Shown: positions 48,433 through 52,624 of the stretch, one piece after another
Numbering within the stretch: the stretch's first letter is position 1
Layout: each line of letters starts with the position of its first letter
NCBI GenBank assembly: GCA_034638255.1
Contig: JAWPGT010000002.1
Location: 1,302,001 to 1,366,000 of the forward strand
DNA length: 64,000 bases
Direction: 5' to 3'
DNA from: Coprinus comatus
Taxonomy: Eukaryota; Basidiomycota; Agaricomycetes; Agaricales; Agaricaceae
The notes under the pieces: generated by a model
The model's database searches: none
Told to the model about the DNA's origin: nothing
What the model saw: only the letters and a program-made list of their open reading frames with translations
Program-made: the position numbers and the translations under genes

Positions 48433-51400
48433 ATGTCTCGTCTGACGACCTCTCCCTTCCACAAACCGTCGCCATTCATTTTCCCGAGGGAACCAATTAG
48501 TCCACCTGAAACTCTGACTGACAGTGGATACTTGTCTACAGGCCTGCCCCAGATGTTTCAAGAACCTAGGCTTGAGGAGACCATAGCCACAAGTATAGAG
48601 GTCCCAGGATTTTCCGCACCATCTCGAACCGCAAGTGGTCGCCCGTCCATTTCATACCAGAATTCTAGTCTCCGTGATACTCATGCACGACCTGTCCAAC
48701 GAAGTTATAGATTCTTCGTTGTGGTTATACCTCCTGCAACAGTGATTCATGAACATGGACAACTTGGGCGCACGTTGGCATCCGGACCACCACATAGACT
48801 TTCCCAAGGTATCATTATGCCTCTGTTTCCTACGGCGAGTTTAATGTCTACCTCCGAATCGCGCCATCTTTTGTTCATGCCCATGGTGACAGCCGTACTA
48901 CCATCGCCGATGACACTACCCCTGGACAAGAGGATCAATCCGTTGCTCAATCTCCGCCCCGTAGTGTACCCGTTAATCGACATGTTCCCAGAAAGCTTTC
49001 CCTTTTAGACCGTATTGAACTTCTCGCCCCCCGTCCAGAAAGCAGGGACAGCACAGTTCTTACCTTAGATGTTCCCGAACGGTCTCTTTCCAAGATACTC
49101 TCACCTATTGCCCAGGAAGAGGAACCTAAAACTGCCAAGGAACAATTGGATAAGCGGGTCAACTCTTGGAGAGCTACTGCCATCGTCAAACCTACACCGT
49201 TAGCAGGGCGCGGCCAAACAAGCCTTGAACCGGTTAATCTCCCTAATAACCTCTCACTTGATGGGGATGCGGTCGGCCTTGATGTAGAACTAAAATTGGA
49301 GGATTTTACTTGGTCAATTTCGTCTGTGGGTCCTGATGACTATGACATCGTGACAGTTGAAACGCTCTCTGAGCGCCTTCCATCTCCTGACATAGCCCAT
49401 CGCATGCTCGAAGACTGTCCACCGACCCCATCCACGGCTACTAGCTGGGGCCCACCTTTATCCTGGCCGGCCAGTCCTTTGAGTGACTTTAGGGCGCCTT
49501 CTTTGGACCTTGGCTTCCGCTCAGTTTTCAGCAGACCTGTTACTCCTACTACTGCGACGTCTTGGGGACCGACATCACCGGCCATGTCGGCCTACGGACA
49601 GTACTATGACTATTCCCCAGCACAATCTGTGCATCTTTGCGATCGTGCTGAATTCAGTCGCCCGGTTACTCCAATGACCGCAACGAGTTGGGGTGCACCA
49701 CTTTCTTATCCCCCGTCACCTATCACTCCTTATCATATCGGGACTCCGGACGCTGCACAGCGTTCCTTCGATCTTGCACAAGAAAATCAATTCACCCAGG
49801 GGCAGCCTCGCAGGGTAAAGCAACAACCATGGAGGAGTGTCTGGCCGTATTTCCGGGCTTCAGAGGCAGTTACAACTGAAAATTCTAAGGTCCCTTCTCG
49901 GATGCCGGGGTACCCCCAACTCTCTATCTGTGAGATTCCACTCTCGTGATATTGGGATTGATTCTTATTACCTCACCTAGACACTCCTGTGTATCCCCAT
50001 TTTGATCTCTATCCAACCCCAGCCGCTTCGATGACACAGAAAGATGCTATAAAACCCACTGTGGAATGGATTTTCCTAAAACCACAGTATCCAAATCTTT
50101 GTGTTTGTATGTATCATTAAATCATATTCGAAGGGTATCCGCATTGAGCTTCGTTTTCAGATGCACCGGTCTATCCCTTCAATCTTATTTCAATATATCC
50201 TGTAATCTCATCTGAGGGACATGTTGAACCGTCTGTTTGCAAGGTTGCATCACAATATCCTATCTTTGATTTGTGTAAGTGGGACTCGTCTTCCTTTCCC
50301 TCAGCCGGTCCAATACCTAAGTCGCTCTGTAGACCCTGCAGTGGGAAAGCCAGAGAAGGCCATGTCTTCTCAAAAAACTAATTGCACCTACCCAGCTCTT
50401 AATATATGTGGGTCTAATGATGTTCAAGAATGCCAGCTTATTCACTAGCATTGTAGATCCTGCGGTCTACCCTCACTTCAACATATATCCAACTATTGAT
50501 CGAATTGTTTCCTCGAATGAGGGACACTCAAGTTTCTACAGTGCTTACAATTATCCGGCTTTAATTATTTGTAGGTTTTCATTTATCAATATATAGAAAT
50601 CCGGACGTGACTCATGGAAAACCAGATCGGACGGTTTATCCTCATTTTGATATTTATCCATCTATAAACGCTAGAGAATTGAAAGCAGAAACTGCTAATC
50701 CTCGTTTGGGCGTCCAAGTGCACCTACCAATCCTTTCTCCTCAGATTACTATCTGTAAGTTGAGTCGAAATCATATTTGGACGATCACTTGAGTGTAACT
50801 CTTATATGATAGACCCGTCGTCATACCCCAATCTGAAGATCTATCCACCAGTCACTGTTCAAAAACCCAAAGAAAAAGTTGAAGTTCCAAATGTCAGAGT
50901 AAAATTATCTGTTCAATATCCTGATTTTGATATTTGTACGTGTGTTATAGTTGTTAGTTTCATGCGCTCACAATCCATCAGACCCATCGATGTACCCAAA
51001 CCTCAATATCTATCCTTCTAGCTCGGAAACATCCCAGACTAGTGTAGTAACAACGCGCCCTTTGGCTGTTGTATCAGCATCACAATACCCCATCTTTGAT
51101 CTGTGTATGTCCTCCCTACAAACGTGTTAGCATATACTGACGTCACTTAGACCCAGCTGTGTATCCCCACTTCAATATCTATCCGGCGCGCACCGAACCT
51201 AAAGATAAGATGACATTGGTTCCCGTATCTGTGACATGGCCAATTTACCCAGTATTCAATCTCTGTACGTAGAGTTTCTACTCTGTATATTTGTTCTTAC
51301 AAGTTTCGTAGATCCTTCGGTGTATCCTTGCTTTGACCTATATCCATTTGTTCCGAAGGTGCAGAATCCTGGCGTCACCCGGCGCACTTCGAATTCAGTC

Positions 51401-52624
51401 AATGTGTTACTGGGATCATGTAAGTTCCATCCTGTAATTGCGGAATCAATAATTCAAGCGATATTATTTTGGTAGATCCCATTATATGCGTTTACCCCCC
51501 TGTTTACCCACACTTCGAGTTATATCCTGCGAAAATGGCCAACATCCAGTTAACCGTTAACGAGCCTGTGGCATTGAATAACTCTTCGACCTATCCAACC
51601 TTCAACATATGTAGGTCCTCATTCGTCGCTATTACTTTCCTGTCACCTTACAGATAAGCAGATCCTTCGGTTTATCCAAATTTCAACATATATCCTCCAG
51701 TTGCCATGGCATTTTACCCACCTAGAAAAGATGTCGTATCACAGCAGAGCCATCCGTATCCATTCCTTGATATCTGTTAGTATTCTCCACATTATTATTA
51801 TTATTACCGCAAGAAATCTTATACAATATCAGATCCAACTGTCTATCCTCATTTCAGCATTTACCCAGCTATATCTGGCTCAAATGATCGTGATTTTATG
51901 CTCAGCGCCAACACGACATCCATTGCTCGACATACAACGAGGAAATTGAAGTTTCATCATGATCTTGAGGTCCTCAGGTTTAATGAGGTCCGGTCACATA
52001 GTGGTACAAGAGCGCCAATACCTGCAGGGCTGGACACACTGCATTCCGGATCGCTACGCTCAACCCGGCGAATCGCATTGGCTCGTTCTCCAACGGGTCC
52101 GGCAATGCATAGATCGATGCCCCCACCTGCTTTACCAAGCCCAAGTCGTAGGCTCCCTACACCTCCTTCGTCAGGATCTGTCCGGTCTCCTAATGGTTTA
52201 GAACAATTGGCCTCCTACAGAGTCGAGGCGAATGCCAGTTCTTCAAGTCGTCGACTGAGTGTTCTGAGCGTTGCAAAACGAGCGTCTATGATGCAGCCTC
52301 TGCGGCAAATGCCCCCTCCAAAGTCAGCGGATACGATCAGACGACATAATGACAACATACCTACGAGCCAGCCTCCAGGTCTGAGCAGGGCGGCATCTTT
52401 AGGCAATGCTAGGTCAAGAGCTACAAGAGTCAAGTCAAGCTCCAGAGAATCATTCACGCTACAACGAGTACCGGGTGAAGGACTTTCTTGTAAGATACAT
52501 TCATATACTTGATTTTTACCGTTTGCTCAAATACCGTGTCACAGTCGAAGTGAAATCCATATCACCGACAATACCACATACCGGTCAGACGAAGGTCGAC
52601 TTGTCTGATTACCCTTTTGTATGA
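48433..52624 (+). CDS. Unrecognised protein with tandemly repeated YPHFxIYP exons
   Basis: I do not recognise this gene. The first ATG (MSRLTTSPFHKPSPFIFPRE) opens a Ser/Pro-rich, disordered region of about 490 residues, with three copies of TPxTATSWGxP at 49425-49700. From 49930, thirteen introns of 46-58 nt follow, all in phase 1. Eleven internal exons (49981-51775, each 75-135 nt, all multiples of three) encode variants of Y-D-P-x-V-Y-P-H-F-[ND]-[IL]-Y-P plus a variable middle and a closing Y-P-x-F-[DN]-[IL]. A twelfth unit opens the 657 nt exon 51833-52489, whose remainder is Pro/Ser/Arg-rich. The last exon (52545-52624) ends LSDYPFV. Total is about 1,150 residues. No signal peptide, transmembrane segment or enzyme motif is visible. 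Near 48801-48806 the frame changes by one base (see findings). Scaffold, linear-motif or wall-related roles are all unproven. Confidence 0.75.
49425..49700 (+). repeat. Three TPxTATSWGxP protein repeats
   Basis: Within the long first coding region of the tandem-exon gene the motif appears as TPSTATSWGPPLSWPASP, TPTTATSWGPTSP and TPMTATSWGAPLSYPPSP, about 40 residues apart. The second and third copies are both preceded by F-S-R-P-V, so they form a longer unit. The nucleotide sequence has diverged at third positions (for example ACTAGCTGG, ACGTCTTGG, ACGAGTTGG), suggesting an old duplication kept at protein level. Confidence 0.8.
49981..51832 (+). repeat. Array of eleven symmetrical phase-1 repeat exons
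   Basis: Exons read directly from splice signals and frame: 49981-50106, 50161-50274, 50333-50407, 50457-50570, 50626-50754, 50813-50935, 50982-51104, 51151-51264, 51312-51419, 51476-51610 and 51662-51775, with a twelfth unit starting at 51833. Each ends with a lone T before GT and each next exon starts with AC or AT after AG, so every junction makes a Tyr codon. Unit 3 (75 nt) lacks the YPHFxIYP core. Units 5 and 9 have lost the closing YPxFxI. Unit 10 has a partial internal duplication (VYPPVYPHF). Middles differ widely in sequence. Intron sequences show no obvious mutual similarity, so the duplications look old. Confidence 0.85.

What the first reader, a model, noticed from the sequence alone, without database searches (positions are those of the whole stretch)
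49981..52489. Gene built from twelve tandemly duplicated, symmetrical phase-1 exon modules
Seen directly: eleven consecutive exons (75-135 nt) are all multiples of three and all flanked by phase-1 introns of 46-58 nt splitting a Tyr codon (T|AC or T|AT). Each encodes a version of Y-D-P-x-V-Y-P-H-F-[ND]-[IL]-Y-P; a twelfth copy opens a larger exon. Such symmetrical exons can be gained, lost or skipped without a frameshift, so the array is set up for exon duplication and for alternative splicing. I know no named domain with this motif. Inference: a repeat family that grew by exon duplication, whose variable middles differ while the aromatic-proline core is kept.
Basis: partly seen in the sequence, partly recalled or inferred. 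Interest (0 to 1): 0.88.

Follow-up and report, generated by a model that had tools for sequence, protein, structure and literature searches.

The report
Mushroom scaffold gene of duplicated mini-exons
A gene found across mushroom-forming fungi carries a row of small interchangeable exons that each add another copy of a tyrosine-proline peptide to a floppy protein, a layout that lets evolution lengthen or shorten the protein one unit at a time.

Summary
The exon array is real. Eleven consecutive exons (49981-51775; 75-135 nt, all multiples of three) lie between 46-58 nt phase-1 GT..AG introns that split a Tyr codon; a twelfth unit opens a 657-nt exon that is also symmetrical. Correction: the motif has no Asp (that G is intronic). 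Across junctions the protein reads YPxF[DN][LI]|YPxVYPxF[DN][LI]YP. A DNA pattern for YPxF[DN][LI]YP hits the 35.7-Mb genome 6 times, all in this gene. The gene belongs to an unnamed family (261 relatives, 120 listed) without a Pfam match. Unspliced ORFs of relatives show intron read-through at the same phase-1 junction in 75 of 120. Arrays of close relatives differ mostly by whole units (41 of 44 gaps hold two or more YPs). The array is predicted disordered; the only confident fold is an N-terminal, perhaps ubiquitin-like, domain. Best reading: a scaffold whose exon-encoded peptides dock a partner many times over. A Bro1/PalA-type V domain is a speculative partner. Exon skipping is untested. 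In this assembly the N-domain lacks about 100 residues, with a frame change.

The parts
48433..48834 (+). First coding stretch, start codon to LFPT, aligning with residues 1-130 of Macrolepiota P0001
   Evidence: tblastn, 61% identity
48835..48887 (+). Unresolved 53 nt where relatives have about 102 more residues (most of the conserved N-domain); reading frame differs on the two sides
   Evidence: tblastn gap P0001 131-232
48888..49929 (+). Large coding stretch with TATSWG-like repeats and a PWxxVWPY motif, ending YPQLSI|T
   Evidence: 62% identity to P0001 233-560; donor at 49930
49981..50106 (+). Array exon 1, 126 nt, phase 1-1
50161..50274 (+). Array exon 2, 114 nt, phase 1-1 (YPFNLISIYP variant)
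50333..50407 (+). Array exon 3, 75 nt, phase 1-1, degenerate; missing as a block from relatives P0002 and P0003
50457..50570 (+). Array exon 4, 114 nt, phase 1-1
50626..50754 (+). Array exon 5, 129 nt, phase 1-1, no closing YP motif
50813..50935 (+). Array exon 6, 123 nt, phase 1-1; about one unit extra here against three relatives
50982..51104 (+). Array exon 7, 123 nt, phase 1-1
51151..51264 (+). Array exon 8, 114 nt, phase 1-1
51312..51419 (+). Array exon 9, 108 nt, phase 1-1, no closing YP motif
51476..51610 (+). Array exon 10, 135 nt, phase 1-1
51662..51775 (+). Array exon 11, 114 nt, phase 1-1
51833..52489 (+). Exon 12, 657 nt, phase 1-1: twelfth unit, then post-array KFHHDLEVL motif and basic tail
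52545..52624 (+). Last coding exon, ends ...SDYPFV and stop at 52622-52624

Best explanation
This is one member of an unnamed, probably intracellular scaffold or adaptor family of Agaricomycotina: a small folded N-terminal domain (perhaps ubiquitin-like), a long disordered middle, a disordered array of tandem YP-motif units, a short motif after the array and a basic tail. Each array unit is one symmetrical phase-1 exon cut inside the motif ([LI]|Y), so duplicating or losing an exon adds or removes one unit without touching the frame. Most likely mode of action: multivalent docking, in which the repeated YPxF[DN][LI]YP / YPAVYP peptides each bind the same kind of partner weakly and copy number sets avidity. 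Shown: exon layout, motif conservation, conserved first junction, unit-sized differences between protein models of related species. Predicted: disorder and the N-domain fold. Inferred: docking, avidity, intracellular location, and that units spread by exon duplication in the DNA.
For: Exon layout. Family of 261 proteins, 120 listed, reaching Ceratobasidium and the Dacrymycete Dacryopinax. Read-through at the same phase-1 junction in 75 of 120 ORFs; after YPxxx[LIVM] the next residue is C 85 and Y 28 times in those ORFs, against C 15 and Y 2088 times in the 120 proteins; the residue after C fits a GTRNG donor in 78 of 85. Two close pairs, ORF against protein, part exactly at the junction. 44 array gaps of 18 or more residues in 60 of 61 close pairs: 41 hold two or more YPs; 33 are 35-48 residues, 3 are 77-82, 4 are 114-121. 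Array pLDDT about 24-35. Core residues kept while linker length varies. YPxF[DN][LI]YP found only in this gene in the genome.
Against: No binding partner, localisation or RNA evidence. Low pLDDT can also come from a shallow repeat alignment (30 sequences). 45 of 120 ORFs show no YPxxx[LIVMT]C, many because they stop before the array; 7 junctions in 7 ORFs are continuous, so some lineages lack some introns. Of the 44 gaps 36 come from pairs in one Suillus cluster, so they are not independent, and gene models can miss or retain small introns and exons. Exons and introns of the window array could not be told from shuffled sequence by a crude aligner. The window copy lacks most of the N-domain.
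Confidence: 0.55

Rival explanations
1. A specific form of the docking model: the array is a string of YPX[LI] / YPX3[LI] ligands for the V domain of Bro1-family proteins (PalA/Rim20 or Bro1), tying the scaffold to ESCRT or ambient-pH signalling.
For: In 117 of 120 relatives the arrays hold 4839 YPs, of which 2178 fit YPX3[LI] and 1120 fit YPX[LI]. The own genome has two loci with the ALIX LYPXL-binding domain, both next to BRO1 matches. Fungal PalA is reported to recognise YPXL/I (title of Vincent 2003, seen in reference lists).
Against: F (0.32) and V (0.24) outnumber L (0.15) and I (0.08) at the +3 place, and the conserved F, D/N and second YP go beyond the known motif. Any such genome is expected to have Bro1 proteins. 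No binding was tested.
Confidence: 0.15
2. The array is a sticker-and-spacer polymer that associates with itself through aromatic and proline residues (condensate or cortical meshwork), and copy number sets how readily it assembles.
For: Predicted disorder; regularly spaced Tyr-Pro, spacings 6 (1961) and 4 (916) far ahead of others; further aromatic motifs WxxVWPY upstream in 99 of 120.
Against: The fixed order F-[DN]-[LI]-Y-P is more specific than stickers need; no assay.
Confidence: 0.2
3. The units fold together into a regular beta-repeat structure.
For: Short strands at some units in the model; hydrophobic alternation in the core.
Against: pLDDT about 24-35 over the array; linkers vary widely in length.
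Confidence: 0.06
4. The gene is chiefly a device for alternative splicing: skipping symmetrical exons makes isoforms with different unit numbers.
For: All 11 exons can be skipped in frame.
Against: No transcript variants seen (none could be searched for). Exon skipping was 1% of called coding-region events in S. commune, although a separate analysis in that paper lists 1,527 such events (passages).
Confidence: 0.08
5. The copy in this strain is defective, or the assembly is wrong, at the N-domain (48835-48887); the array is a relic or still works without the domain.
For: About 102 residues conserved in relatives are missing and the frame changes over 53 nt. The missing piece finds no near match elsewhere in the genome, only a distant gene on contig C1.
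Against: Everything downstream is open, with usable splice sites at all 13 introns listed and 62% identity to Macrolepiota over the large coding stretch, so any damage is recent. In-frame GT..AG choices across the gap exist (GC..AG choices were computed but not printed), and I could not single one out.
Confidence: 0.4

Closest known systems
Unnamed Agaricomycotina protein family (database names: hypothetical protein; two listed ones 'salivary gland secretion 1')
   Same: Same gene family: N-terminal domain, YP array, post-array motif; up to 45% identity
   Different: The window copy lacks most of the N-domain and has its own set of units
Second gene of the same genome, contig C1:329875-330501 (-), with a related N-terminal domain
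   Same: 33-55% identity to P0001/P0040 over pieces of the N-domain
   Different: No YP array seen in its frames; no Pfam family
YPXL/I and LYPXnL ligands of PalA and ALIX V domains (PacC, retroviral late domains)
   Same: Tyr-Pro followed by Leu/Ile one to three residues later; disordered setting
   Different: Here a tandem array with F at +3 and a following YP; binding unknown
Animal repeat proteins made of symmetrical exons, such as tropoelastin and the titin PEVK region (recalled, from no call)
   Same: In-frame exon cassettes encoding a disordered repeat
   Different: A fungal gene with short introns, and the junction cuts the repeated motif itself
Ubiquitin-like / PB1 folds (N-domain only)

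Membership tests
Agaricomycotina YP-array family (defined by the relatives) | Tandem YPxF[DN][LI]YPxVYP array | tested here: met
Agaricomycotina YP-array family (defined by the relatives) | Complete conserved N-terminal domain | tested here: not met
   About 102 residues missing in the window; strain deletion or assembly error not settled. The rest of the protein aligns along its length, so the gene is an orthologue with a damaged or misassembled N-domain
Agaricomycotina YP-array family (defined by the relatives) | Phase-1 intron at [LI]|Y at the start of the array | tested here: met
   Window. Relatives: 75 of 120 unspliced ORFs
Agaricomycotina YP-array family (defined by the relatives) | Post-array [KR]x[TS]HxxL motif (102 of 120) and C-terminal SKYPF-like peptide (23 of 120) | tested here: inconclusive
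   Window has KFHHDLEVL and ends DYPFV, similar but not matching the patterns
Tandem duplication of symmetrical exons | Successive exons of the same phase, multiples of three, encoding alike sequence | tested here: met
Tandem duplication of symmetrical exons | Copy number changes by whole exons between relatives | tested here: inconclusive
   Unit-sized differences in protein models; genomic DNA of relatives not available
Bro1/PalA/ALIX V-domain ligands | YPX[LI] or YPX3[LI] sequence | tested here: met
   1120 and 2178 of 4839 YPs in relatives
Bro1/PalA/ALIX V-domain ligands | Binds a V domain | not testable with these tools
   Needs a binding assay
Ubiquitin-like or PB1 domain (N-domain) | Clear structural match over the domain | tested here: inconclusive

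The most novel reading that the evidence does not exclude
Mushroom-forming fungi evolved, by repeated exon duplication, a scaffold carrying many tandem docking peptides for a Bro1-type (PalA/Rim20) partner, whose number is still changing between sister species, so that exon count directly tunes an ESCRT- or pH-linked signalling assembly.
Probability: 0.13. Interest if true: 0.75.

Novelty: new variant of a known kind. Interest (0 to 1): 0.55.

Why it matters
The gene is widespread in mushroom-forming fungi yet has no Pfam family. Four strings of its motif are in none of the 5.39 million papers searched, and I saw no fungal case of this kind in the listings (which showed 5 of 5, 12 of 1,392 and 12 of 24 papers). 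Because each junction cuts the motif itself, the gene is a clean place to ask whether introns help repeats spread, and how the copy number of a short motif affects a scaffold. Both can be tested in Coprinopsis or Schizophyllum.

Full report
What is there. The gene runs on the plus strand from ATG 48433 to a stop at 52622-52624. Splicing by script confirms eleven array exons between 49981 and 51775, 75-135 nt, every one a multiple of three, with 46-58 nt GT..AG introns all in phase 1 and all splitting a Tyr codon (T|AC or T|AT). A twelfth unit opens exon 51833-52489, which is 657 nt, again a multiple of three, and leaves through another phase-1 intron. Most exons also end with a YPxF[DN][LI]-like motif, so the conserved core is cut by the junction: YPxF[DN][LI]|YPxVYPxF[DN][LI]YP. 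Exon 3 lacks the second core, and exons 5 and 9 lack the closing YP motif.

Not chance. A DNA pattern for YPxF[DN][LI]YP (without Leu codons CTG, TTA, TTG) hits the 35.7-Mb genome six times, all in this gene; the reversed pattern hits none. A protein search of the own genome with half the array finds only this array (three candidates were scored).

Family. A database search with the whole protein gives 261 proteins at E<=1e-3, of which 120 were listed; the named ones are Agaricomycetes by their genus names (recalled; Macrolepiota was looked up). A search with one array gave 40 proteins and adds Ceratobasidium and Dacryopinax primogenitus, a Dacrymycete. Pfam has no family for it and the array has no PDB sequence match. 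YPx[FL][DN][LI]YP occurs 1207 times in 117 of the 120 proteins, and 0 times after one shuffle of each. Other conserved parts are an N-terminal domain, a WxxVWPY-like motif (99 of 120), a [KR]x[TS]HxxL motif (102 of 120; 2 of 120 shuffled) that lies after the array in the sequences I looked at, and a C-terminal SKYPF-like peptide (23 of 120; 0 shuffled). The window protein ends DYPFV.

The first junction is old. A search with the N-half limits candidate length and so returned mostly unspliced ORFs (120 of 214 listed). Of the 120, 75 hold YPxxx[LIVMT]C, and 72 have such a motif within 60 residues of their end. This is what reading through T|GTRAG would give. In these ORFs the residue after YPxxx[LIVM] is C 85 times and Y 28 times; in the 120 proteins it is Y 2088 times and C 15 times. 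Later array introns of relatives are seen only in the few ORFs that reach them.

Spliced transcripts of relatives are probable. Fourteen proteins without organism names lie on contigs of 3.9-7.9 kb with open frames through 3-15 continuous junctions. That these contigs are transcripts is my inference.

Gain and loss by units. Aligned with three Agaricaceae relatives, the window array is largely collinear; window exon 3 is missing as a block from two of them, and the window has about 41 residues (one unit) more around exons 5-6 than all three. In 60 of the 61 pairs of proteins with at least 70% identity over 350 residues, the arrays hold 44 gaps of 18 or more residues. Of these 41 contain two or more YPs; 33 are 35-48 residues long, 3 are 77-82 and 4 are 114-121, i.e. 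about one, two and three units. Thirty-six of the 44 come from one cluster of Suillus proteins (one unnamed), so the counts are not independent. Small exons are easily missed in gene models and a few models visibly retain intron text. Near-identical neighbouring units in Suillus do point to recent duplication.

How it may work. Fixed motifs, linkers of free length, no predicted fold, and copy number that varies in whole units fit a disordered scaffold with many copies of one docking peptide. The partner is unknown. YPX[LI] and YPX3[LI] resemble ligands of PalA/ALIX V domains: 1120 and 2178 of 4839 YPs in the arrays of 117 of 120 relatives fit (three proteins with fewer than three anchors were dropped), and the genome has two loci with that domain, both beside BRO1 matches. 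Yet F and V outnumber L and I at +3, and binding is untested, so I give this 0.15. Self-association is the main rival (0.2).

Alternative splicing. The array permits in-frame skipping, but nothing here shows it. In S. commune exon skipping makes up 1% of the called events in coding regions, although a separate splice-junction analysis in the same paper lists 1,527 such events (PMC5034255, abstract and passages).

A caveat on this copy. Relatives have about 102 more residues where the window has 53 nt, between 48834 and 48888, and the frame differs on the two sides. The missing piece has no close match elsewhere in the genome, only a distant gene on contig C1. Either the strain carries a recent deletion, or the assembly is wrong there. 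The array itself is intact.

Novelty. Symmetrical-exon repeat genes are known in animals (recalled). A fungal one whose junctions cut the motif itself, in a family without a Pfam entry, was not seen in my paper searches (listings only). I rate it a new variant of a known kind, interest 0.55.

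Noticed in passing
window 48834-48888: Most of the conserved N-terminal domain (about 102 residues of relatives) is missing and the frame changes across 53 nt, while everything downstream is open.
   Followed up: partly
L017 (G000:C1:325500-333500), match C1:329875-330501 (-): A second gene of the genome has a related N-terminal domain in an open frame of 781 residues, without a YP array seen; no Pfam match.
   Followed up: partly
window about 46000-48095 (-): Upstream neighbour on the minus strand is a PCI-domain protein, probably COP9 signalosome subunit 4 (PCI by Pfam; the name is recalled).
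   Followed up: no
window about 52640-53760 (-): Downstream neighbour on the minus strand has a PUB domain (Pfam).
   Followed up: no
relatives P0252, P0264, P0267, P0268, P0272 (Ceratobasidium): In the Ceratobasidium sequences read (P0264, P0268) the array favours YPxNLxx[LI]YP, like window exon 2, over YPxFDLYP.
   Followed up: no
unspliced ORFs, e.g. P0145, P0146, P0182: Many of the ORFs without the array junction end in a recurring LADEACK tail, which may mark a different first exon end in one lineage.
   Followed up: no
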